Part shown: in pieces, positions 2,174 to 36,018 of the stretch
Layout of the letters: each line of letters opens with the position of its first letter
Numbering within the stretch: position 1 is the stretch's first letter
Origin: Rhizophagus irregularis
Lineage: Eukaryota > Glomeromycota > Glomeromycetes > Glomerales > Glomeraceae
Direction of reading: 5' to 3'
NCBI RefSeq assembly: GCF_026210795.1
Contig: NC_089435.1
Span: forward strand, 3,844,001-3,908,000
DNA: 64,000 nt
Position numbers and translations under genes: made by a program
The notes under the pieces: model-generated
Database searches by the model: none
The model's input: only the letters and a program-made list of their open reading frames with translations
Told to the model about the DNA's origin: nothing

Positions 2174-5100
2174 ATGGCTTCTGGAGCGACAAAAGCGGCA
2201 GCTAACATTGGTATGATAGTTGCTAAACGGCCCGAAAAGCCAGGTAGTGCTGGCAAAGTCGTTGAATTAAAGACCAACTTTATAGCAGTGTCTACTGAGG
2301 TAAATAGAATCAGTAAATATTTTATAAACTTTACATAGTGAAAAATTAAGTATTCGAATTACTTTTAATAGTTTAAATATCCGAAAGTGCACTATTATTC
2401 TTTTGAAGTTTCTGATGCGAAAAAGAAAAAAGCTGGAAGAAAGGACTCTCAGAAAGTGTTCGAGCAAATGAAAAAAAATCAAAAATTCGGTGCAAAGGCT
2501 TTACCGGTTTTCGACGGTGGGCAAGTTTATTCAATATCACAGCTTGATATAGGGCATAGAAAAGAAACAAGGAGCCATTCGGTAACATTGGAGATATCGA
2601 TTATATTTGATTATTCAATTAAGCAATAATACACTATAAATTAACTTTGTTAATGTTACGATTTAAGGTAAAAATTCCCGTGGATGCTGATGGTTCAGGA
2701 CGTGAAAAGGACTTAAAGGTTGAAGTTAAATATCAAGGAGAAATAGATTTGAGTCCTATCGGAGATTATGTTAAAGAGAAATCTACTAGTGCTTGGGATG
2801 GGAATATTCAAAGTAGTTTGACTGTCTTAAATGCTTTTGCAAATAATAAAGTCCGATTATCGTTTTTATCTGTGGGAAGAAAGGCGATATTTCCGCCGCC
2901 TCGTGATAATAGACCAATTTTTTTGCCCGGTGGTATCGAAATGAAACAGGGGTTCTATCAATCAGTAAGACCTGGATGGGGTAAATTTTTTTTTAAATTT
3001 TTTATATTTAAAGTTAACTTAAAGAAACATTGATTTCACATATTGTTAAAACTTTCGCAGGAAGGCTTACAATAAATGTGGACATATGTGCTACCACTTT
3101 TTATCCTGCGGGTCCTATAATTGATCTCATACCAAAGATTATCAAAACCAAATTTGACAGGCATGAAAAAACGAGAGATGAATTACGTAGAGGCTTGGAT
3201 AGGAGAGAAATTGATACTCTTAATAGATTTTTCAGAGGTGTCATGATTTTTGTAACTCACAGATCAGACAACCGTAAACCAAAACATAAAGTGTCTTATC
3301 TAGATTCTCAACCAGCTGATCAAGCTAAATTCAAACAAGGCAATAAAGAGATTACAATTGCTCAATATTTCAAAGAAACCTACAAACAAACCTTGCAATT
3401 TGGACGATTACCATGTATTGTTGTAATTAAACCAGACAAGACAAAAGTGTTTTTTCCTTTAGAAGTGTGCGAGATATGTCCTGGTATATTTGTATAAATA
3501 CATATTTTTTTTTGGCTTATAATAATTTTTCTTTGAAGTGAGAAAATAATTACTAATAATTACAATTTTTGTAGGACAAAGATACGAAGATAAACTTTCT
3601 GATGATGCCCGAAGGGAAATGGTTCAAAAAACTGCGATCAAACCGTGGGAAAGATTTGATCGTATCGAAACAGCTATCAAAGATATTTTTCGACATCAAA
3701 GAGACGAAAATTTGCGCTCTATTGGGATGAATGTAGACCCAGAGTTTATTAAGGTCAAAGGTAATTGTCAGAATGAATGATACAAGGTCTTGTTTTTTTT
3801 TTAACTTTTCAAACTCGACATTATAATATTAAGGTCGCGTCATTCAACCACCAAGATTAACTAATGGTACAGAAATAGTCCCGGATGGAGGACGTTGGGA
3901 TTTGAGAAAATTCATTAAAGTAAAAATTTATAACATTGAAATAATAGTAAATTTATTACTTATTTTATTAAAATTTATAATTTATATGAAATTTTTATTT
4001 ATTTTTAGTGTCCTAGGCTTCATAATTGGTCAGTAATTGTATTTGAAAACAGGAATTATGCTCCTCTAGAAATGGTCAAAAATGCTATTAGACAATTAGT
4101 CAGTTCTTTAAGTGAAAGAGGGATGGTAAGCATAACGAAAAGAAGTTGTCAAATATTTTTAAATTTAAAATTTTATCGTTTTATATTTATTTATACATAC
4201 GACACCTCTGTGTATATATATATATAGGACGTCTATCCAGATCCACCAATAGAATATGGTAACCCACAAGGCGGTTACGATAAAGTAAATTTTCTTTTTT
4301 TCTCACTTTTTTTTTATTTATATATAATTCATGAATTACTTTTTTTTCAATTTAGTCGCTATTACTTGCTGCTCAAAAAGCCAGGATAACGCGTGATAGG
4401 CCCGCACAACTCATTATTTGTGTAATTCAGAAAAAGGTCTTAGGTGCATCTGGTATTCATGCTATAATAAAACGTATTTGTGGTACTCAACTTGGTGTAA
4501 TTTCCCAATGCATTGTTGCCAACAACATGAAAGGCCAAAACCCTAGTCGGTGGAGGCAAATATGTGGTAACATTTCTTTGAAAATTAATGGAAAATTAGG
4601 TGGTAAAAATTGTGTTTTAGCTGACAGGGAACTTAATTTTGGAACGAACAAACCGGTACTTTAATATATTATCTCTATCTTAATCCTTTGTTCATAGTTT
4701 ATATTAATTTTGTGTTTATAATTGTTTCCTATAAGTATATGGTATTCGGTGCTGATGTTTTTCATCCTGGTCGTGAAGAAAAGGGACGGCCAAGTGTAGC
4801 TGCAGTTTGTGCATCAGTAGACAAGACAGTTACAAGATATGTTGGCCGACACAGTATGAATCAAAAAATAAAAAATGAAATTATCGAGAATCTCGAAGGC
4901 ATGGCAGTAGAATTATTAAATCAATTTCAACGAGAAAATAATATACTACCTTTCCAAATTGTGTTCTACCGTGATGGTGTTGCTGAAGGTCAATTTCAAC
5001 ATGTCGTCCAAAAAGAAGTAGAAGCACTAAAACGTGCTTTCAGTCGAGTTTATGGCGAAAAGGGTGAAAAAGGGCAAAAACCACAATTAACGTTTATTAT

Positions 5101-5792
5101 TGTGCAAAAACGTCATCATGCACGGTAGGTTACATTTTCTTACAACATATTTCATGGCTATTTCTATGATTTATAAATTTTACACATTTTATCTATAGGT
5201 TTATGCCTGTTCAGAGAGGAGACTCTGATAGAAGCGGTAATTGTAGACCTGGTACAATTGTGGATACTGAAATTGTGGTACCTCAAGAATTCGACTTTTG
5301 TAAATAACCAATCATTCATTTTTATTCTATAGTTATATGTATAACAACAGCACTTATGTTTAATATGTACGAATTGCATTCTATTTTAATATAGATTTAC
5401 AGTCCCACGCAAGTCCTCTTGGAACGGCTCGTCCTACGCATTATCATGTGTTATTAAATGAAGCTAATTTTCCTGTTGATGCTATACAGACCTTAACATA
5501 CAAATTATGTCATTTATCTGCCAGGTAATATATATCATTTAAGCTTATGAATAACAAAGTAAAAACTTATCATTTGCATTTAAATTTCAGATGTAATCTT
5601 GCCATATCTCATGTGACTCCGGTCCACTATGCTCATCATATTGCGAACCAAGCAAAACATTTCGTTTCATGGGATGGTTCTGGCAGTGGAAGATCAGGTA
5701 GTTCAGGTGGTCGTGGAGGTGATACTGTTCCAAATACCACCAGATGCGAGAAAATGAAATCCGGGATTGAAAACGAGATGTTTTTTGTTTAG
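2174..5792 (+). CDS. Argonaute protein, slicer-competent (DEDH)
   Basis: RNA-silencing effector that binds small RNAs and cleaves complementary RNA. Thirteen exons join in frame to about 879 codons: 2174-2299, 2372-2581, 2668-2980, 3061-3483, 3575-3760, 3834-3919, 4009-4125, 4228-4284, 4356-4655, 4736-5124, 5199-5299, 5395-5524 and 5591-5792. The ATG at 2174 gives MASGATKAAANIG, preferred over an in-frame upstream ATG at 2108 because a short basic leader is usual. Order: N domain, linker, PAZ (about exon 4), MID (exons 5-9), PIWI (exons 9-13). The catalytic tetrad is present: D613 in VFGADVFHP, E654 in the glutamate finger (NEII), D686 in YRDGVAEGQF and the His of PTHYHVL. No stop or frameshift is seen. 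The 3' ends of this gene and MCM2 converge. The boundary at 2582-2667 is the least certain. The family is strongly expanded in Rhizophagus (general knowledge). Confidence 0.95.
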
Positions 5793-12855: not shown

Positions 12856-13965
12856 TTAAAAATTAATATTAATATTACCATTCTTTGTATTAGCATTCAA
12901 AGTACCATTTTTATCACCAACTTTACCAGTTTTCTTTTTATCTTCACTAATAGCTACAGTAGAAGGATTATCAATATTAACTTTACCATAATCTGTCTTT
13001 GCATCATAACTTCCACTAAAACTAGAATTCTATATTAAAATTAATATTGAAAAAAAAAAATTAATACTCATTTCATGTATAATAAATAATTTTAAGATAC
13101 TTATAATACTTACGAAATTTAATTGGATATCACTAAGTGAATTTGTAATTTCAATCTTTGGATTAGTAGCATTAGAACTAATCGAAACATTTAATTGAAT
13201 TCCACCATTATTTGTAATAGCAATCAACTCATTAACAATTTCCGAAACAGAACCTGTAATACCACCATTATTGGTATTTAATGTTAAACTTCCAACTGCA
13301 AAATTATTAACATCAATTTCACCATTTACAGTTTTAGCAATAATTTGAGAAGAATAGGGTACTGGATTTGCATAAAAAACAATATCATTTACATCCGTAT
13401 CAATTGTTATAACAGAAGGAATTGTCTGCGGTAATACTACTTCTACTTTTGCTAAAACACATCTTGGTGGTAAACTAAAGTAACCTATCCATGCCAAAGA
13501 ACCTTTAAAAGTATCTGCTCGTTCCTAAAGTTAAAGAAGAATATGTTACAGTGACGTGTTATTATTTATGATACGTTTATAATACTTACGAGGAATATTT
13601 TCTTTGTAGAATCAGCATTTTCTTCTTTAATAGATGTTGTTTCATCTTTTGTAGCCACAACACGAACCGAGACAGATACATTTGTATCGCTGGTTGAATT
13701 ACTTTGTGTGACATAAATTTGACCCGTCTAAAAATAATATAATTAATACTTTTAATATCAAAAAAACATTATTTCATTATTTCAATTACTTACTTTAGTT
13801 AATATACTATTAAATGAAATAAAATTGAGAATTGGAAAAATTTTTGGATCATAAGTATGAACAGAAGGCGTAACAGTATTAATATCCACCGTTTGACTAA
13901 GTTTACCACAAACATTAACATTTACTCCCAAAATAACCTAAAAAAGAATTAAATTAATAAAACCT

Positions 13966-18271: not shown

Positions 18272-19677
18272 ATGGCTCCAACAAAAACAATTAATGTTCA
18301 CTTAGCAAGGGCTAACCAAGTCATTGACGTTGTTAGGCAATTGCCTTATGACCCGACTTATAAATCCGAAGACGTCGTTCACATTTCTCTTACTATGGCA
18401 CCAAAAGCTAGAATAGAAATTGCTTCTATAGCAGGAATAATTCAATATTCTTGTGACTTGGTTATGTCAAAAACAATTCATGACGTTATATTCGACTTTT
18501 CAAAAGTTAAACTACCTTTCACTTGGCCGGCAAAGAAAACTATTCGTGATATCCTGACTTTGAAACCAAAAGACCCAGTAGCGATTGAATTAGTTAGTAA
18601 AGACTGTCGTTTGACAGTTTTCAAAAAAAATGACCCTAAACGCCGTGATGAATGGTATGACCATATCAAGAACTGGAGAAAAGATGTACCTCAACGTTTC
18701 CACTTAATGTTGAATGAATTGGTTGAAAATGTATCAGCTCATGCTCAACTTGAAGAATCGCGTTTTGTCTTTACGGTCGGTTTATTATTCAGTACAAAAA
18801 AGGTATGTACTTATAATCAACTTAAATTTATTTCACATGCTTATTGAATATAATCATTTTGACATTGTTTTCGTTTTGTTTTTAGCAACTTTTATACTGC
18901 ATCGCAGATTGTGGTGTAGGCCTTAAAGGATCACTTAATCACGCAATCGTTTCCGAAGCTAAACAAGTTTCAACACGTGCTTGTGCATTAAATTTAACTC
19001 GCCCTCAATTCACGTCAAAAGGAATTCAACGTGGTCATCAAGGTGTCGGACTTTTCATCACTTCAGAATTATCGCAAATGAACCAAGGTTACCTCGAAAT
19101 TATTTCTGGAACACAGGAATATGAACAAAGTGGTAAGTAAAAAGAATATTGATGATATAATATATATTATTATTAATATTTTTAATAACAAATTATTTAT
19201 AAAATTAAAATACTTTTTCTTTATTCTGTGTAAATAGACAATACAGTCATGCGTATACGTGGTGTTGCAGAATGGAGAGGGACAATGGTTCATGGAGCAA
19301 TTAATCTCGATAAGGAATTTAATTATCGTCAAGCAATGAGATTATTTTCTGATCCTTCCAAGCTCTCTAAGGACCGTTTCTTGGTTGCTCATCTTCACTT
19401 GAATGTATATGGAGAACGAACCTTAAGAACGAGAGAACTTTGTGAAGAAATAATTCGGGACCTTGAACTTTCTGTTGAACGTTCACCAAAAATTATATTA
19501 GATTTCAGCGATATTGACGAGATCAGTCAGGCCTTCCGAGGTTTCTTACGACAATTCGTTGTAAATAATAAACATGTAAAAATTATGATTATGGTTCCTC
19601 CAAATGCAGACGAAGATTTGAAAGAAGATTTACAAGAATTAGTCGAGCTTGCTGCTCAAAATTTAGATGATGATTAG
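18272..19677 (+). CDS. GHKL-type ATPase with C-terminal STAS-like (DUF4325-like) domain
   Basis: Three exons join in frame to 405 codons: 18272-18802, 18886-19132 and 19238-19677. The middle shows the three GHKL/HATPase boxes in order: N-box NELVEN (about 148-153), G1 DCGVG (185-189) and G2 GHQGVGL (227-233). The C-terminal 110 residues have the alternating strand/helix look of a STAS-like domain: YGERTLRTRELCEEI, then IILDFSDIDEISQAFRGFLRQF, then IMIMVPP. In bacteria this pairing occurs in ATP-binding proteins with a DUF4325 domain, thought to act in partner-switching regulation (family knowledge). The N-terminal 110 residues may be another STAS-like unit. A eukaryotic, spliced copy is unusual. 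A misassigned N-terminal start is unlikely because MAPTKT follows an A-rich leader typical of this genome. Confidence 0.8.
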
Positions 19678-20878: not shown

Positions 20879-23802
20879 CTAATTTTCACGTGACTTATTC
20901 GATCTATTGATATTGGAATTTTCGTCTCCATTGGTTGTCATACGAGAGACAGAAATCGACGTTGACAAACCAGAATCTGAAGCCGTACTACCCGAATTTG
21001 AACCTGTAGTCGAAGAAGAATGGCAAGAATCAGATGATGAAGATCTAGATGCATTGCCGTGTCCGTGATTTTGCAAGTGATGATTATGTTGTAAATGATT
21101 ATTTTGACTATTATGATGCTGTCCATGATTATAAAGTCCATGATTTGAAAGATTATTGTTAACCACCACCCAACTACTTCTTTTAGAAAGTTCAGCACTC
21201 GGTGTACCATGAGTTGTTGATACACCATTTGTGTGAATATGATTATGTCCATGACCATTCACAATCGTATTTTGTTTTCCTGACAATGATGATGACGATA
21301 TTGGTACTGAAGAAATTGATAATGAAGACCCATTACCCATTGTCGAATTCCTTGATTCAGGATTTAACCCACTAGCACCATTTGAACTTCCATTATTACC
21401 ATTAGATATACTACTTCCACTCCAAGCAGGAACAGAACCACGTCGTACAAGACCAGGACTCAAATTATCAGGAGGAACTGTTGATACAGGAGAAGGTATG
21501 CTACTGCTAGTAAATCCGCCTAAATGACGGGGAAGTGGTAAAAGAGCAAGAGAAGCTCTACGAGCATATCCTCCTATGGCATTACTAATAGCAGCAGTAT
21601 TAAAAGATAGTCCTGGAAGTGAAGGAGGTAAAGTAGTCACAGGAGTTGTAGGTAATGACTGTGTTGATGGAGCTGGTGGATAAGCCGGATAATGATAAGA
21701 AGGTGGAGGATATTGAAAAGGATTTGAAGGAGAATCATGAGACATACGTCGCATAAGGTTTGTTATATTATGTGTAGGAGATGGAGTTGGTAAGGTAGTA
21801 TTGTTAGACGAAGGCTGAGGACAATTTCTATTACCATTTATAGATTTTGAAGTTGGTATAGTTAATGTGGGAGTTGTTGGAGGAGCTGATGAATATGGAG
21901 GTGCCGCCGCTGTTCGATAAGCGAGATCTTCTGGATTCATTGGTTTTGGTGATGAATGTCTTGGATGATGATATTGTTGTAAATCATCTGACAAGTCACC
22001 ACTTCTTGCACGACTAAGTAACGAACCGCTACTATTTGCACGTTTTATTGTGGAACCTAAACTCATTGATCTATGATGTTGTGATTGGTGGTGTGGATGA
22101 TGTGGATATGGTTTATGCAAATGATGATAAACGGGGTGATGGGCATTAAACACGCTACTTGAAGCGAAAGGAGCGTGCATGGGTGAATTATTAATGGAAT
22201 TTCCATTTCCATTTGATGCTGAAACCATTGATGGTGATGAACCAGGTAATGGAGGTGGTGGTGTCTTTGATAAATGTGTTGAATATTGTTGTGGAGATGA
22301 TGTTAACGTTGATTGATATGATGAGGTAATGTTCAGTGACTTTGTCGAAGAAAAACTACTATCCCGACGATGCGAACGAATAACATGATGATTATTTTCT
22401 ATTTGATCTTCTTCTTTCATTGCTTTCGATCCACCACCTTTACTTGTCGTATCATCAGTAGAAGGGAATTTACGTGACCTTTTGCTTAGACTCTTATCAA
22501 AGCTATGTCCTGAATCCCATCTGCCATGTCCATTAGGATATCTTATATTATCGTATATGCCCGCACCTTGTCTCATTTCTTCTTCCTTTACCCAATGTTT
22601 GAGTAATTGATCACCGTATTTCTGCAATTCTTCCACTGTAATTGCTAAACGAAAGTCGTTTAAAACGAGAAATTCTAACTCGAGTTGATTTAACTCCGAT
22701 ACCGGTAGTCCTCCAACCTATTAATTTTGGATGATATTGGGTAAAAAAAAATACATATATGTAACAGACATCCAAAAAAGGAATTCAGAACGAAAAAAAT
22801 TTTTATATATTAATCCAATATTTCTCTGAAATAATTTCAAAAAATCAAAAAATAATAAAAAAATAGAAATGGACTAGAAACAATTAGTATTTTTGATTTC
22901 ACTCATTTAAAAAAAAAAAAAAATTTCGTAAAAGTAATAAATATTAATTGTTTCTTAAATTATATCCAAACATATATATATACATACATACATATACATA
23001 TATATATATATATTTAAAAATCAATTAAATATTTTAATTCTAATGAATTCCATATTAAAAAAAAAATTATTATTAATTTCCCCAAATTTTAGGAATAAAA
23101 ACTCCGAGGTTCAAAAAATTTTTAATTGAATTTTTATCCAATTTTCAAAAAAAAAAAAATTAATTGAATTAAATTGAATTGATGGATAAATCTTTTTATA
23201 ATTCATTTATAGCTCACATCCTTGATTTATCCAACAATTCTGTTTATAAAAAAAAAAATAAGGAAGAATTTCCTTTTCGCCCATATATTTCTTTGGCTAC
23301 AAAAAAAAAGAAATTCATGTTGCACCTTTGGAACATAAAAAAAAAAGTTCCTTAAAGAACCTGCTTACCATACCTTTGCGTATCTTGAATTCGTGAAAAA
23401 TACGTCTGAAAAGAATTTGGAAGAGACCATGATACCAGCAATTATTAGACGATGAATATTAAAAGAATCGATAGAGAAAGGTTTTCCAGTTGTTGCTATG
23501 GCATTCTTTGACATACGATCAAAATAAACTAGTAATGATAAGAAACATTCATTTGTTGTTGGACAATATTTCAGTATCCTTGAAAGATAGGAATGAATAT
23601 CTATTGAAGGAACTGAACGAGCATGAAAACGCGTGAAAGAAGGTGTGGAAGCTACTGAAACTGTTGAGGGTGATGTCTCCGTATGGTTTATATTGTGTGA
23701 CTTTAATTGGTCATTAGCACTTGTAATCTTTTCTAGAAGCGAAGCTAGCATCTTCAGAGTGTCCGTAACAGGGAAATTTGCTAAATCCAGCGTGTGCATC
23801 AT
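20879..23802 (-). CDS. PHO80/PCL-type cyclin with long disordered tail
   Basis: Two exons (23374-23802 and 20879-22717) join in frame to 755 codons. Residues about 80-180 form the cyclin box of the PHO80 family: FHARSVPSIDIHSYLSRILKY, FDRMSK, then after the 656-bp intron VGGLPVSELNQLELEFLVLNDFRLAI. The N-terminal DLANFPVTDTLKMLASLLEKI also fits. Such cyclins activate PHO85-like kinases in phosphate, glycogen and polarity control (family knowledge). The remaining 570 residues are low-complexity, rich in Ser, Pro, His and Asn, with LLSRARSGDLSDD and several SP/TP sites that could be kinase targets. Yeast PCLs are much shorter, so the tail is the distinctive part. Which PHO80-family member it is cannot be decided from sequence alone. 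Confidence 0.88.
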
Positions 23803-26138: not shown

Positions 26139-27504
26139 AACTTGATCATCATATAAGGCAAAATTATTGTTCCCCTTATTAAGAGAGTAGTACTTCTTTA
26201 ATTACAATAGATACAATTATACTATATGCATATTTAAATATAGACTTGACAATAATTATTTACTTAACAATGTCCCCCCTATTTTTGTAATCAGTTAAGA
26301 CTTTTTAAGTCGATCTACTAAATAAAAATAAATCAAAGATTTAATCTTTCATAATAAATTGCTTATGTAATAATGTCAAAATAAATAAATTGAATAAAAT
26401 TGATAAACTCCTCTTTCGTGTGGAATTAGTGAATTTCTTATTATAGATATTCGTGCAACATGTAATTAAAATAATTTCCATATTTGGATAAAAAAAAGAT
26501 TTTGTCGCATATTTGTTTGTTTATTAAAACTGGAACATTTAGAAACAACTCCACACAACTCCTGAAATTAGTTTATGTGACAAATTTGGTTATTTAATAA
26601 TTTTATTGTTAGAACTCGTCGTTGTTTCATTAAATTAATTATACAAATTCAAAACAATATATTTTCTTTGTCACATTATGATTGGGAGTGAAGTGTAACG
26701 TGTGAATATATTTTTTCCACCTTTTTTTTGTGTAATATTCCGAACGAGCGTACTCAAACAAATGGTTTTTCACATCCTGTTCCTTGTTTGTTTAAGGTCG
26801 CATAGCACGTTTTATTTGACAAAAGTTTCAGACCTAAATTTAACTCTTTTCTTATCACCTTTAATTACAAATTACTAAAATAAGTATTTGCACAATGAAT
26901 TGAAAACAACGAATTTCCTGGGTTTCACACGCATGGGTCGATTAAAAACAGGGAACAAATAGAATACATACATAAATTTATGCAATGTAATATTTGAAAA
27001 GACTATCTACATATTATTCTATTTGTGCACTTGATATTGTTTTCTTAACTGAAATTGTCTTTGTAAACATGTAATAAAGTAATGATCTACACGAAACTAA
27101 TTTGTGCGAATAAGATGATTTCTTGCAAACGCCCGGGAATGATGAAACTTGATGAAAAACAAGGGGTGATGTATTAAGTGTTAATTCTTTATTGAAGAAA
27201 ATAACGTCTTTACTGTAAGACAAATCAAAAAAATTTTCTATAAATATGGCTTGATTTTATCGTAAGATGTTTCTTCATCCAAAAATAATACATTTCATAA
27301 GATCAATATCCCTCAGGAGGGCTCTATTGTTTTATATACAAAGTTTGAAAAAAAAAAATACACATACTATAATTCTTCCTTCTAGCAGGCTAGAACTTCT
27401 TGTTTTTTAAATATAATATAACTTCGGATTTAGATTTTCATTTTCGTTTTATTTATCTATCAGTCTTTTCTACCTTTTTTTTTTTAATTTACTAAATCCT
27501 AATA
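26139..27504. other. Intergenic, hydrolase to LPMO
   Basis: About 1.4 kb of AT-rich DNA. The last 100 bases before the LPMO are pyrimidine-rich (TTTTCTACC then a T-run), like other leaders here. No gene or repeat is recognised. Confidence 0.55.
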
Positions 27505-28665
27505 ATGAAGTTCTCTTCTGCTATTTTCACAATTGTCGCTACATTTATCGCTTCCGTGTCATCGCACACTACAATGTCATTTCCTCCAACTAGGGGACAT
27601 CCATTAAATAAAAATGCAGCTGTCCAAGACTTTGAATGTATAATGGCACCATTAAATGGTGGATCGGGATGTGCACCTAAAAAATTTCCATGTGGTGGAT
27701 ATCCAAAAGATAAAAAAATCGTTACAACTTTCAAAGCAGGAGAAGTTTTTGAAGTTAAATTTTTTAATCAAAACTTCCCTAAATTAAAAGATGAAGATAA
27801 ACAAAAAGATCAAGCAAGACATAATGGTGGTTTATGTGAATTTTCTTTATCTTATGATGGTGGTAAAACTTATACCGTTATTGCCTCTTATAAAAAAACT
27901 TGTCCTGACATTTTCTTTGAAGGTTGGAAAGTTAAAATTCCTGAAAATGCTCCTTCTTGTGATAGTCCCGGAAATTGTATCTTTTCTTGGAGTTGGATTA
28001 ATGCTGTTGGAAATCGAGAATTTTATCAAAATTGTGCTGATGTTAAAATTGAGGGAAATGCCACCGAACCTTTACCTATTATTGATATTACAAGAGCAAA
28101 TTTACCTCCTCTTTTCAAAAAGATTTTAACTCCCGAAGGTGATGATTTAAATAGTGGTAATGCTGTAGGTTCTGGTCCAAGAAAAGAAGATGTTCAAGCT
28201 AATTTGGCTTTAAAGATTGGTAATGGCAATAATGACAATAAAAAACCTCCACAAAATGATGATAAACAAGATGGTGATGATACACAAGACGACGATAATA
28301 AAAGCCCTCCACAGGATGATGACAATGATAACAAAAGTCCTCCACAGGAAGATGATAACGATAATAATAAACCTCCGCAAAATGATGATGATGGAAATAA
28401 CGATGATAACAATGACAATGAAAATGACAATAACAATGACGATGACAATGACAAAAATGACAATGACAATGACAATGATAATGAAGACGACAATAATCAA
28501 GATATTCCATGTAGTGAAAATGGAACGATGGTTTGTGGCAAAGAAGGTGGTGCTGAATTTCTTACTTGTGATAATGGTAAATTAGTTTCAAGATCTTGTC
28601 CTGGAATTTTAGTCTGTACACAAAATGGTAAATCAATCTTTTGTGGTTATCCAAAAAGAAGATAA
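27505..28665 (+). CDS. Secreted chitin-type LPMO (AA11-like) with CBM19-like tail
   Basis: Intronless frame of 386 codons. A signal peptide (MKFSSAIFTIVATFIASVSS) should be cut just before His21, giving the N-terminal histidine of the copper histidine brace. The second brace His is probably His106 (ARHNGGLCEF). The core ends with WSWINAVGNREFYQNCADV, a pattern of AA11 lytic polysaccharide monooxygenases, with Tyr174 as a candidate axial residue. AA11 enzymes oxidatively cleave chitin. After residue about 230 comes a long Asp/Asn-rich linker with PPQ(N/D)DD repeats. The last 50 residues hold six Cys (CSENGTMVC, LTCDNG, SCPG, VC, FCG), resembling the chitin-binding module CBM19. It may remodel the fungus's own wall or shed chitin during symbiosis (inference). 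The exact AA family needs a profile search. Confidence 0.88.
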   Translation: MKFSSAIFTIVATFIASVSSHTTMSFPPTRGHPLNKNAAVQDFECIMAPLNGGSGCAPKKFPCGGYPKDKKIVTTFKAGEVFEVKFFNQNFPKLKDEDKQKDQARHNGGLCEFSLSYDGGKTYTVIASYKKTCPDIFFEGWKVKIPENAPSCDSPGNCIFSWSWINAVGNREFYQNCADVKIEGNATEPLPIIDITRANLPPLFKKILTPEGDDLNSGNAVGSGPRKEDVQANLALKIGNGNNDNKKPPQNDDKQDGDDTQDDDNKSPPQDDDNDNKSPPQEDDNDNNKPPQNDDDGNNDDNNDNENDNNNDDDNDKNDNDNDNDNEDDNNQDIPCSENGTMVCGKEGGAEFLTCDNGKLVSRSCPGILVCTQNGKSIFCGYPKRR

Positions 28666-32953: not shown

Positions 32954-35900
32954 TTACCTTTCAAACACTTCATTCTCTTTATTAGCATTATCCAATTTTT
33001 CCTTACAAGTTTTGCTATTATGTCCCTTTTGTTTACACAATTTACATGTGTATTGAGTTTTAGTATTAGATAACTCTAAAGTATTTTTCATTCTCTTGTT
33101 TGATTTAGGACGACCTTTTGGCCTTCTTTCAACAGGATTTCGAATATTCATGATATTATCACTTTCGCCGTTGTTATTACTGTTACTAACACCACCATTA
33201 CTATTATCAACAACAATTCTTGGCTGTAATTTTTTTTGAATTGACAGAAAAACCTCACAAAGTTCTCGGTAAGTATCCTCATTGTTGTTTTCAATTACAT
33301 CAACCATTACTTTTCTTCCTAAACCCCAAAGTTCTCCAAACTTACGTTTTTTTGATATAGATTTAGTTATTTCAGTATTTATTGCCGAAGCTCCAACTTG
33401 AATAGCAGATCCATTTGAATTCAAAAATTGTGTTGGCAGAGAATGCGTCTTTAATGCCGACATTTTCATTGAAGAAATGGCAACAAATTCTTTATTTGAT
33501 ATATCAGTCCCTTGAAGTATATCTTTATACCAACGCTGGTTTACCAAACCAATGTGAAATCTAGCAGTAGACGTAAGAGTCATTACACGGTAAAAATGGC
33601 GACATGGATAACCATGAGTCTTGTTGATCATACACGTGCAGAGAAAGGTACCATTATTCAAAAGACATACAAAGTGGGATGTCTTTTGGCTTGTTAAATA
33701 TACAACCTCCCATACTTCAAGAATCAATGAGGTATCTTCTAAAAATAAACTTATTTGTACTTGTGGGCAATCAAATAGGTTATCAATACATTGATTTGAC
33801 TCGTCAAGTATCTAAGTAGGAGTTAATAAATTATTTTTTAAAAATTATTGCCGTTAGAAAGCAAATTAAGCTAAAATTAATAGCGTAAGTCTTACCATTT
33901 CCTTAGAATGCAAAATTTCAAGCTCAATTTCCACAGCATGATAATAAAGACTTAGTTCCATTTGTTCCTCCTGCTTCTTCATAATATTTGGCATTACAAA
34001 TTCATTCAGCTGCTGCGCTACTGGTCCAAAAATAGATGTTGATACATTTTGAGGTCTGATTTGAGGTATAGTTTGATGCCAATTTATGAATTCGCAATAG
34101 TCAACTTCTTCTTGATATCTCTCTTCTAATGCATCAAATAATTCACATAATGAAAGGTTTGAATTTCCAAAAAGCCGTTTTAATACTGAATTTTCACCTT
34201 CATTGCGAGAAGTTGTTTGTGCACCAGCAGTAAAATATTTGCTAGTAAAAGCTCGTGCCCATGATTGAAAATTACATCCTAAAGACCTTATCAAATAATT
34301 TTTAGCTTGTGGGTAATTCTGTAGTAATATCTCCCACCTTTTATTGAATGAACAAATACATAAATTAATTACAATATACTTTCTATTAAAATCAATAAAC
34401 AAATGAACAATTAAATTTATTTAATTTCAAAGCACAATAAACAAAATTCTACAATAGATGATATACTGTAAAACAATGGAAGAATTTGAATAGACTATGA
34501 TAAAAAAATAATGGAGTCTAATGAAACAATGATAGAGTCTAGTGATTACAACAAAAAAATTAATGATGGAGTCTAATTAAAAAATGACAAAGTCTAATGA
34601 TTACAATGAAAAGGTTAATGGAATTACAATAAAAAAACAATGGTAGGAATGGCAAAATTGTAAGTACAATAGAAAATTTGTAAAACAATTTAACACAATA
34701 AGTATACCTTTCGTTAAACTGTTTTTCTGTTAAACTGTTTCTTGTCATGTAAAAGTCCTTCATAAAATTATCAAAATTAGATCCAAGCTTCCCCTTTAAT
34801 TGCTTTGGCAAGTTTTGGCCTATATGCCAAATACAATGCATATGAAAAGTATCAGAAAATAGTGTTGCAACAGCACCACTAACTGCTGGATCACTATCTG
34901 TAACAAAAACTTTCGGCGATATACCGGTAGCCTCTTTTACACATTGAAAAACCCATTCATATGAGAATTGTGTCTCATCATCAACAATTGCCTGAGCTAC
35001 AATTCGTGTTTTCAAATTATTATCAGGTGTAACAAAGATGGATAATGGTCGATTATAACGGTTAGTTTTACAAGTATTATCATGCATTATCACATCATGA
35101 TAACGTAACCATAATATTTGTTGTTCTGGACTCATCCAAAAAAGATGAGTTAATGAAGAAGTAATAGGATCTAATTTCATTGAGACTACCCATCGAGGAT
35201 CTTCTATTTTTTTTTCGTGGAGTCTTTTTAGCAAGATTCCCGCATCTGCTTCACCTGGTGTTGATTCACGACGAAATTTACTAATAGCATTATAAAGATC
35301 TGGTCTATGTATTCTAATTTTAAATTTTTCTCTAATAATTCGATATTGTATAGTTGCATCTGCCTTAGCAACAACTGTTAAAAAGCGAATTTCTTCCATA
35401 ATCTCATCTGATAATTTTCGTAATGTAGGGACAAATTTAATTGCTGATGGATGAAGCTCATGACCGACATGTTGATCATGTAAAGTTGTGACCTCAAGAC
35501 ATCCTTTACTTTTTTTTGCCCAAATATTTACTCTCCATGGACATTCAACTCGGCAAGATGAAGTTTGTCTTTTCGATGATTTGGACTTAGCTTTTCCAGC
35601 ATGGCGACACAAGTATGTTCGTTTTGTTATTTCTTGTGTTGTTTTATCTACCCTTCCTCCTCCACCAATTCTTACTCCATGGCCTTTGGTAGCAGCGTAT
35701 TTTTTCATAAAATTTGCTACACGATCCCAATTATGAAAGGTCTTGCCAACATAAAGCTTCATAGTATCCTCCTCCTCCTCCTTCTCCTCTTCCTCCTCTT
35801 CCTCCTCTTCCTCCCCTTCGGCAATATCTTCAATTTCATATTCATTATCGGACATGCCATTTAAACTATAGTAACAAAAGGCATAGCTAATATCATTAGA

Positions 35901-36018
35901 TATATTCTAACTACCTAAGAAAATCTCTATTACTTAACCTGTCAGTATCAGAAAATTCTTCCGCACTATCATATTCCAACAAAGCTTCTAATTCGGCGTC
36001 TTGAATGTTTTTTTCCAT
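32954..36018 (-). CDS. MULE transposase with FAR1-like, SWIM and CCHC domains
   Basis: Four exons join in frame to 845 codons without a stop: 35939-36018, 34708-35865, 33896-34337 and 32954-33811. After an acidic N-terminus (a Glu run) comes a FAR1/WRKY-type zinc domain (KLYVGKTFHNWDRVANFM..YLCRHAGKAK..CPWRVNIW). Next is the MULE DDE core: Asp in IMHDNTCKTNRYNRPL, Asp in VFVTDSDPAV with the CIWHIGQNL motif, and Glu in TTSRNEGENSVLK. A SWIM finger (CTCMINKTHGYPCRHF) and a CCHC knuckle (CKLCKQKGHNSKTC) follow near the C-terminus. The transposase would bind the element ends and move it by cut-and-paste. Intact reading frame and conserved catalytic residues make activity possible. The first exon is a prediction from splice signals; translation could also start at 35855. 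Confidence 0.85.

What the first reader, a model, noticed from the sequence alone, without database searches (positions are those of the whole stretch)
18272..19677. Bacterial-style GHKL ATPase fused to a STAS-like domain in a spliced fungal gene
N, G1 and G2 boxes followed by a DUF4325-like STAS domain is an architecture I know from bacterial regulatory proteins, not from eukaryotic histidine kinases, Hsp90, MutL or topoisomerases. The gene has two fungal-type introns and intact key residues, so it is resident, not contamination. It may be an old transfer adopted as a signalling or partner-switch module.
Basis: partly seen in the sequence, partly recalled or inferred. Interest (0 to 1): 0.72.

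Follow-up and report, generated by a model that had tools for sequence, protein, structure and literature searches.

The report
Fungal relative of bacterial immunity kinase
A gene in what looks like a mycorrhizal-type fungus encodes an ATP-binding protein of bacterial origin whose relatives switch bacterial anti-virus defences on after DNA damage; that such a gene had jumped into this kind of fungus was already reported, while its link to bacterial immunity and the apparent loss of its usual switch residue appear to be new.

Summary
A three-exon gene (18272-18802, 18886-19132, 19238-19677, +) encodes 405 residues with intact GHKL ATP-site motifs and a C-terminal DUF4325 (STAS-like) domain, among eukaryotic genes. 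Its GHKL part scores 82-84 bits against a profile of 25 prokaryotic/phage relatives; with a profile of the same 25, no PDB chain exceeds 27.8. The relatives' DUF4325 partner matches VapS (PDB 9z7o, E 1.8e-9), so the family is best read as CapK/CapS and VapK/VapS: kinase plus STAS substrate, ssDNA-activated in CapK, controlling bacterial immune operons or a VapC toxin (Chambers et al. 2026, PMC13373217). Relatives are two adjacent genes or, as here, one fusion. Li et al. 2018 (PMC5982333) already reported a Rhizophagus irregularis "ATPase, DUF4325" gene (ESA12330.1) as a highly expressed transfer from bacteria; identity with this gene is untested. Apparently new: the link to the immunity switch, and that the fungal STAS lacks Ser/Thr at both candidate phospho-acceptor positions (Gln357-Ala358), where 28 of 28 prokaryotic/phage rows have one. 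The N-terminal 130 residues are unassigned. Best reading: a domesticated, self-tethered GHKL switch protein; biochemistry untested.

The parts
18272..18802 (+). exon 1: residues 1-177, N-terminal region of unassigned fold (about 1-130) and the N box
   Evidence: profile tests of the N-terminal region negative
18803..18885 (+). intron 1 (83 bp, GTATGT...TTTTTAG)
   Evidence: homologues continue across the junction
18886..19132 (+). exon 2: G1 and G2 boxes of the GHKL ATP site
19133..19237 (+). intron 2 (105 bp, GTAAGT...AAATAG)
19238..19677 (+). exon 3: end of the GHKL domain, DUF4325/STAS-like domain, stop codon
18713..18742 (+). N box, residues 148-157 (NELVENVSAH; E149, N153, H157)
   Evidence: columns of E149, N153 and H157 invariant in the 12-row alignment
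18907..18921 (+). G1 box, residues 185-189 (DCGVG)
   Evidence: D185, G187, G189 invariant
19042..19053 (+). G2 box, residues 230-233 (GVGL)
   Evidence: G230, G232, L233 invariant
19420..19659 (+). DUF4325 (STAS-like, VapS-type) domain, about residues 321-400
   Evidence: model pLDDT about 80-89 here
19525..19533 (+). residues 356-358 Ser-Gln-Ala, where 28 of 28 prokaryotic/phage rows have Ser/Thr at the second or third position
   Evidence: the second position aligns with Ser66 of chain 9z7o_A, taken to be VapS S48

Best explanation
The gene is a horizontally acquired, domesticated fusion of the two halves of a bacterial CapK/CapS- or VapK/VapS-type switch: a GHKL serine/threonine-kinase-type domain joined to its own STAS (DUF4325) partner. 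Here the partner is covalently tethered and the canonical acceptor position is Gln-Ala, so I think the STAS domain acts as a non-phosphorylatable docking or pseudosubstrate module beside an ATP-competent GHKL domain: it probably holds the kinase in check, or presents it to a fungal client, and ATP binding plus an input through the N-terminal region changes that. Shown: gene model (exon 1-2 junction supported by homology), ATP-site residues, family of both domains by profile, absence of Ser/Thr at the acceptor positions. Inferred: that the family is CapK/VapK in function, ATP binding, kinase activity, pseudosubstrate role. Unknown: input signal, client, cell biology.
For: GHKL domain 84.4 bits with the prokaryotic/phage profile (82.8 for the whole protein) against at most 27.8 bits for any PDB chain with a separately made profile of the same 25 proteins. 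BLASTP against a viral-contig homologue E 4e-13 over residues 136-359. Same domain order in six fused homologues L001, L002, L006, L061, L040, L041. Two-gene form elsewhere: in 13 of the 25 non-fused context loci the profile finds a separate DUF4325 ORF just downstream of the kinase ORF. DUF4325 partner profile hits Escherichia VapS 9z7o_A at E 1.8e-9, next hit E 0.36. A kinase / STAS-like / PIN trio on a Deinococcus plasmid, and a gene related to that PIN protein in 7 of 30 context loci (two of the seven, L046 and L047, look like near copies). Function of the family read in PMC13373217. Transfer and high expression of an ATPase/DUF4325 gene in R. irregularis read in PMC5982333.
Against: The kinase sequences of the CapK/VapK paper were not held, so the tie of the GHKL part to CapK/VapK rests on the VapS match of the partner, the gene trio and the described architecture, not on a direct comparison. 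The N-terminal 130 residues, where CapK/VapK have STAS, match no family profile better than shuffles do (7 of 150, 17 of 100, 17 of 100 and 270 of 809 shuffles score as high). The C-terminal match is weak (15-17 bits), and both Pfam hits are below gathering. The fold search ranks Hsp90 and topoisomerase ATPase domains first, at TM about 0.2, with no STAS chain among the 50 rows shown, so it shows a GHKL fold only. No kinase assay exists; the STAS could be phosphorylated at Ser356 or elsewhere. The tree does not join the fungal protein to the fused bacterial clades, so the fusion may be independent.
Confidence: 0.5

Rival explanations
1. An active cis kinase: the GHKL domain still phosphorylates its own STAS domain, using Ser356 (one residue before the usual site) or another Ser/Thr, and the phospho-state changes binding to a fungal client.
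For: ATP-site residues intact; Ser356 lies next to the canonical site, and the rows differ in whether Ser/Thr stands at the second or only at the third position, so the site seems to tolerate drift.
Against: None of the 28 prokaryotic/phage rows has Ser/Thr at the first position alone, and the helix after the motif (ADELFGKL in many rows) is not conserved in the fungal protein.
Confidence: 0.22
2. An ATP-gated scaffold with no kinase activity: GHKL binds ATP and dimerises or changes shape, with the STAS domain as a binding surface.
For: GHKL proteins are often ATPases and not kinases (established knowledge); acceptor residue absent.
Against: The characterised protein of the same architecture, CapK, is a kinase (PMC13373217); E149 and N153 are kept.
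Confidence: 0.18
3. A decaying relic of a transfer with no function.
For: Long branch in the GHKL tree (2.9 changes per site); STAS motif eroded.
Against: Open reading frame across three exons and an intact ATP site; GC3 0.27, within the range of the seven other window ORFs measured (0.12-0.38); a gene of the same description in R. irregularis is among its most highly expressed (FPKM > 36.20; PMC5982333).
Confidence: 0.06
4. A divergent member of a standard eukaryotic GHKL family (Hsp90, MutL, topoisomerase, MORC, PDK/BCKDK, hybrid histidine kinase).
For: The fold search of the weak model puts Hsp90 and topoisomerase ATPase domains first; the PDB search with a profile that includes the fungal row lists one topoisomerase IV chain at E 0.032.
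Against: Pfam finds none of their partner domains; TM-scores about 0.2 with large rmsd; with the profile that leaves the fungal row out, PDB hits at E <= 0.1 are bacterial histidine kinases, SpoIIAB and STAS chains, with no Hsp90, MutL or topoisomerase.
Confidence: 0.02

Closest known systems
CapK/CapS and VapK/VapS(/VapC), Chambers et al., EMBO J 2026 (PMC13373217)
   Same: GHKL domain followed by, or adjacent to, a STAS-like DUF4325 partner of the VapS type
   Different: One fused, spliced fungal protein; no canonical acceptor Ser/Thr; N-terminal STAS not recognisable; ssDNA-contact aromatic not assignable; no homologue of a Deinococcus VapC-like PIN protein found in the window. CapK/VapK sequences themselves were not compared
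R. irregularis ESA12330.1, 'ATPase, DUF4325' (Li et al. 2018, PMC5982333)
   Same: Same description: bacterial-type ATPase with DUF4325 in an AMF genome, best hit bacterial
   Different: Sequence not held here, so identity or orthology with the window gene is untested; the paper gives no mechanism for it
Fused prokaryotic/phage homologues (L001, L002, L006, L061, L040, L041) and PHROGs phrog_3364 / phrog_5816
   Same: Domain order, length (414-439 aa against 405), ATP-site motifs, homology through GHKL into DUF4325
   Different: 16-23% identical in the alignments made; all six keep Ser at the acceptor site; single uninterrupted ORFs
SpoIIAB/SpoIIAA anti-sigma kinase and antagonist
   Same: GHKL kinase acting on a STAS partner (established knowledge); the prokaryotic/phage profile reaches SpoIIAB (about 20 bits) and an antagonist-type STAS, TM1442 (21.7 bits)
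   Different: No sigma factor known in the CapK/VapK systems; far lower scores than the fungal protein has with the same family

Membership tests
CapK/VapK-type GHKL kinase | GHKL ATP site (N, G1, G2 boxes) | tested here: met
   E149, N153, D185, G187, G189, G230, G232, L233 invariant in 12 rows
CapK/VapK-type GHKL kinase | GHKL domain nearer to this family than to other GHKL families | tested here: met
   84.4 bits against at most 27.8 for PDB chains. The two profiles hold the same 25 proteins but were aligned separately, with the fused rows cut to about 300 aa in the first and whole in the second. That these 25 are the CapK/VapK family is inferred from their DUF4325/VapS-type partners; the paper's CapK and VapK were not held
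CapK/VapK-type GHKL kinase | N-terminal STAS domain before GHKL | tested here: inconclusive
   The single-sequence model is beta-alpha-beta-alpha-beta here (pLDDT about 45-54), but the 12-row model does not repeat it (pLDDT about 27), and profile scores are no better than shuffles
CapK/VapK-type GHKL kinase | Aromatic ssDNA-contact residue (CapK W68, VapK F54) | tested here: inconclusive
   One kind of alignment puts the DFSKVKLPFTWPA stretch (F83, W85) beside the bacterial YPN motif; another leaves no aromatic there
CapS/VapS-type STAS (DUF4325) | Profile match to DUF4325 | tested here: met
   17.3 bits, 0 of 911 scored shuffles as high; Pfam DUF4325 E 0.0027 but below gathering. The step from DUF4325 to VapS was made with the prokaryotic/phage rows, not with the fungal protein itself
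CapS/VapS-type STAS (DUF4325) | Conserved Ser/Thr phospho-acceptor | tested here: not met
   Ser356-Gln357-Ala358 in the fungal protein; 28 of 28 prokaryotic/phage rows have Ser/Thr at the second (21) or only at the third (7) position
VapKSC / capKS immune locus | Adjacent VapC (PIN) toxin gene or immune operon | tested here: not met
   No window ORF of 25 codons or more matches a Deinococcus VapC-like PIN protein at E <= 1 (one query); the nearest ORFs of at least 150 aa on either side (13033-13524 and 20882-22717) have no Pfam match at E <= 0.001
CapK/VapK-type GHKL kinase | ATP-dependent, ssDNA-stimulated phosphorylation of a STAS protein | not testable with these tools
   Needs protein biochemistry
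Eukaryotic GHKL families (Hsp90, MutL, topoisomerase II, MORC, PDK) | Their partner domains beside the ATPase | tested here: not met
   Pfam lists four families up to E 10 (HATPase_c, DUF4325, HATPase_c_2, ODC_AZ), none of these partner domains
Published HGT gene ESA12330.1 of R. irregularis | Sequence identity or orthology | not testable with these tools
   No fungal genome or that accession is held; no whole genome for the window

The most novel reading that the evidence does not exclude
A mycorrhizal-type fungus has kept the ssDNA/DNA-damage-sensing half of a bacterial immune switch and rewired it: the CapK/VapK-like kinase is now permanently leashed by its own, no longer phosphorylatable STAS domain, and on DNA damage or foreign nucleic acid it acts on a fungal protein, a eukaryotic co-option of a bacterial anti-phage signalling kinase.
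Probability: 0.15. Interest if true: 0.82.

Novelty: new variant of a known kind. Interest (0 to 1): 0.52.

Why it matters
Bacterial immune modules are a known source of eukaryotic immune parts; one recent preprint describes a TIR protein transferred into amoebae (PMC13142454, abstract and section list seen only). This gene would be a case in which the regulatory kinase, not the effector, was taken up and then lost its phospho-acceptor. It also gives a testable function to a gene of the kind that Li et al. 2018 listed only as a highly expressed 'ATPase'. I found no earlier statement of the link: 'DUF4325' occurs in two papers of the library, the words 'fungi' and 'DUF4325' do not occur in the CapK/VapK paper, 'VapKSC' occurs only in that paper, and the broader searches (several of them showing only the top 15-20 of more papers) listed none. 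Subscription papers are mostly not in the library.

Tried and rejected
Single-sequence structure prediction was poor (mean pLDDT 38.9). With a 12-row alignment it rose to 55.3: the STAS domain about 80-89, the GHKL domain 47-75, the first 130 residues under 50. Fold search against PDB gave only generic GHKL hits led by Hsp90/TRAP1 at TM about 0.2. The viral library gave GHKL proteins and, at insignificant E (0.21 and 0.23), two small viral proteins with target TM 0.56 and 0.59. Phmmer of the fungal protein against PDB sequences had no significant hit (best E 0.041, LptC).

An N-terminal STAS domain in the fungal protein, which I first believed in because of topology and the stretch DVIFDFSKV, was set aside as unproven: four profile tests were negative (two).

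My first idea, that the acceptor is the third Ser of SSSF, was changed: the VapS alignment puts it at the second position, and seven rows have Ser only at the third, so I counted either. The VapS S48 assignment rests on an assumed 18-residue tag (chain 134 aa, native 116 aa by the paper's residue numbers). The place of Ser58 in SpoIIAA was recalled from memory. Left out of the 28-row STAS count: L003, L004, L005, L044, L046, L047, L051 and L068, whose partner ORF I did not extract; five rows (L009, L048, L049, L055, L059) entered because they lie directly downstream of the kinase, and for L065 I identified no kinase ORF.

The tree could not place the fungal protein or name a donor. Profile searches of genomes covered only 296 and 395 genomes in the phyla of two handles, and the one genome-contig scan confirmed 2 of 31 candidate stretches, so the closest bacterial relative is not known. 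Direct tblastn with the fungal protein found nothing in plasmids (E <= 1) and four phage records, one at E 4e-5 and three at 0.2. Viral-contig scans with the fungal protein alone, or with it as first row, found none. A 2023 R. irregularis genome paper (PMC10234402, one passage seen) has no word 'ATPase' and set aside possible transfers from its analyses.

Full report
THE GENE. Exons 18272-18802, 18886-19132 and 19238-19677 on the + strand join into 405 codons and a stop; the introns are GT..AG, 83 and 105 bp. The CDS has GC 0.37 and GC3 0.27, within the range of seven other window ORFs measured (GC 0.29-0.40, GC3 0.12-0.38), while its introns and flanks are far AT-richer (GC 0.11-0.24). Of 10 window ORFs scanned with Pfam, five matched: PAZ and Piwi exons, an MCM2_N exon, an LCAT-like hydrolase and a FAR1/MULE transposase. 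The window (GC 0.285) is therefore a eukaryotic, very probably fungal, contig; an arbuscular mycorrhizal fungus is likely but not proven, as no genome is held for it.

THE DOMAINS. Pfam sees HATPase_c (E 0.001) and DUF4325 (E 0.0027), both under the gathering score; NCBIfam sees nothing up to E 1; PADLOC gives only a weak match to a stretch of DrmA (E 4.8e-5, residues 143-294). PHROG families of unknown function are clearer: phrog_3364 at E 2e-13 (residues 112-288) and phrog_5816 at E 0.0015 (173-396). A profile from 25 prokaryotic and phage relatives, with the fungal row left out, matches residues 132-293 with 82-84 bits; of 831 scored shuffles the best reached 6.4. A profile from 28 DUF4325 partners gives 15-17 bits to the C-terminus, against at most 11.3 for 911 scored shuffles. 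As a control, a separately made alignment of the same 25 proteins was searched against all PDB chains: the best was a bacterial histidine kinase at 27.8 bits; SpoIIAB reached about 20; at E <= 0.1 no Hsp90, MutL or topoisomerase appeared. An earlier 12-row profile that includes the fungal row did list one topoisomerase IV chain, at E 0.032. In one search the N-terminal part of the bacterial kinases matched STAS structures (TM1442, prestin), and Pfam calls STAS in the Deinococcus kinase, so at least some of the bacterial kinases are STAS-GHKL.

THE RELATIVES. One of the latter (L040) has Fic, RhuM and AbiEi genes nearby, and the other (L041) an M78-HTH protein and a DUF4411/PIN protein upstream, one small ORF away. 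Of the 30 context loci, five are fused; in 13 of the other 25 the profile finds a separate DUF4325 ORF of 94-186 aa just downstream of the kinase ORF, and in the remaining 12 it finds the kinase only. The Deinococcus gobiensis plasmid P5 carries the trio ATP-binding protein, STAS-like protein, PIN-domain protein, and 7 of 30 context loci hold a gene related to that PIN protein (L046 and L047 look like near copies). On a Janibacter plasmid the DUF4325 partner has weak MarR/winged-helix matches in its C-terminus, under their cut-offs, in keeping with the STAS-wHTH layout described for CapS. At E <= 1e-15 the three-row profile of fused proteins matched 10 of 296 genomes in the phylum of G002 and 17 of 395 in the phylum of G001.

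WHAT THE FAMILY DOES. The DUF4325 partner profile (seven rows, no fungal row) matches Escherichia VapS (9z7o_A) at E 1.8e-9; the next PDB hit is at 0.36. This leads to Chambers et al. 2026 (PMC13373217; I read the abstract, the sections on anti-sigma likeness and VapKSC, the discussion, and passages). CapK (HTH-STAS-GHKL) is activated by ssDNA and phosphorylates CapS (STAS-wHTH) on a conserved serine, which breaks the CapS dimer and de-represses an immune operon. VapK and VapS do the like for a VapC toxin, and the operon protects E. coli from at least one phage; ssDNA activation of VapK is the authors' inference. Nearly 20% of capK+capS genes are sandwiched between a restriction-modification operon and an immune operon. 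I did not hold the paper's CapK or VapK sequences; the tie of the kinase part rests on partner, gene order and architecture.

WHAT DIFFERS IN THE FUNGUS. At the acceptor site all 28 prokaryotic/phage rows have Ser or Thr at the second (21) or only at the third (7) position of the motif; the fungal protein has Ser356-Gln357-Ala358, so neither. The ADELFGKL-like helix that follows in many rows is not kept. The ATP site is complete. The first 130 residues match no bacterial STAS profile better than shuffles do, two alignments place them differently, and the two structure models disagree there, so neither an N-terminal STAS nor the ssDNA-contact aromatic can be claimed.

ORIGIN AND NOVELTY. Li et al. 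2018 (PMC5982333; abstract, results and discussion read) list R. [quoted passage not shown] The window gene fits this description, but I hold neither that sequence nor any fungal genome. The transfer is therefore known in kind; the tie to the CapK/VapK immune switch and the lost acceptor residue I found nowhere (searches, some of them showing only the top of a longer list). The GHKL tree puts the fungal protein on a branch of 2.9 changes per site with weak support (77/81) beside L007 and L042: no donor can be named.

MECHANISM. My best reading is a self-tethered GHKL switch whose STAS part docks on the kinase but cannot be phosphorylated at the usual place. Rivals are a cis kinase using Ser356, an ATP-gated scaffold, and a relic. 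Structure work did not decide: the better model has mean pLDDT 55, and fold searches returned generic GHKL hits.

Noticed in passing
window 3018-3494 and 4637-5125 (+): PAZ and Piwi exons of an Argonaute gene about 13 kb upstream.
   Followed up: partly
window 34563-35906 (-): FAR1/MULE-type transposase; Li et al. 2018 describe a 10-member MULE family in R. irregularis.
   Followed up: no
window 27496-28662 (+): A protein that starts like a secreted one, with His-Thr-Thr-Met early and an acidic Asn/Asp-rich tail; looks to me like a chitin-binding or LPMO-type secreted protein, but Pfam lists nothing at E <= 0.001.
   Followed up: no
window 20882-22717 (-): 612-aa low-complexity Ser/His/Asn-rich frame whose first residues look like the end of a cyclin fold (my reading); no Pfam match at E <= 0.001.
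   Followed up: no
L001 2003-3322 (MT837999.1): Fused kinase-STAS gene whose ends overlap those of the hsdR-like and hsdM-like ORFs (my reading) in a gut contig recorded as phage.
   Followed up: partly
L041 5032-7176: Fused kinase-STAS gene downstream of a DUF4411/PIN protein, one small ORF away: possibly a vapKSC variant in which kinase and antitoxin are one protein.
   Followed up: partly
L068 2950-3828 (Halobaculum plasmid): A haloarchaeal homologue of the kinase; no DUF4325 partner is listed next to it in the record's (incomplete) gene table.
   Followed up: no
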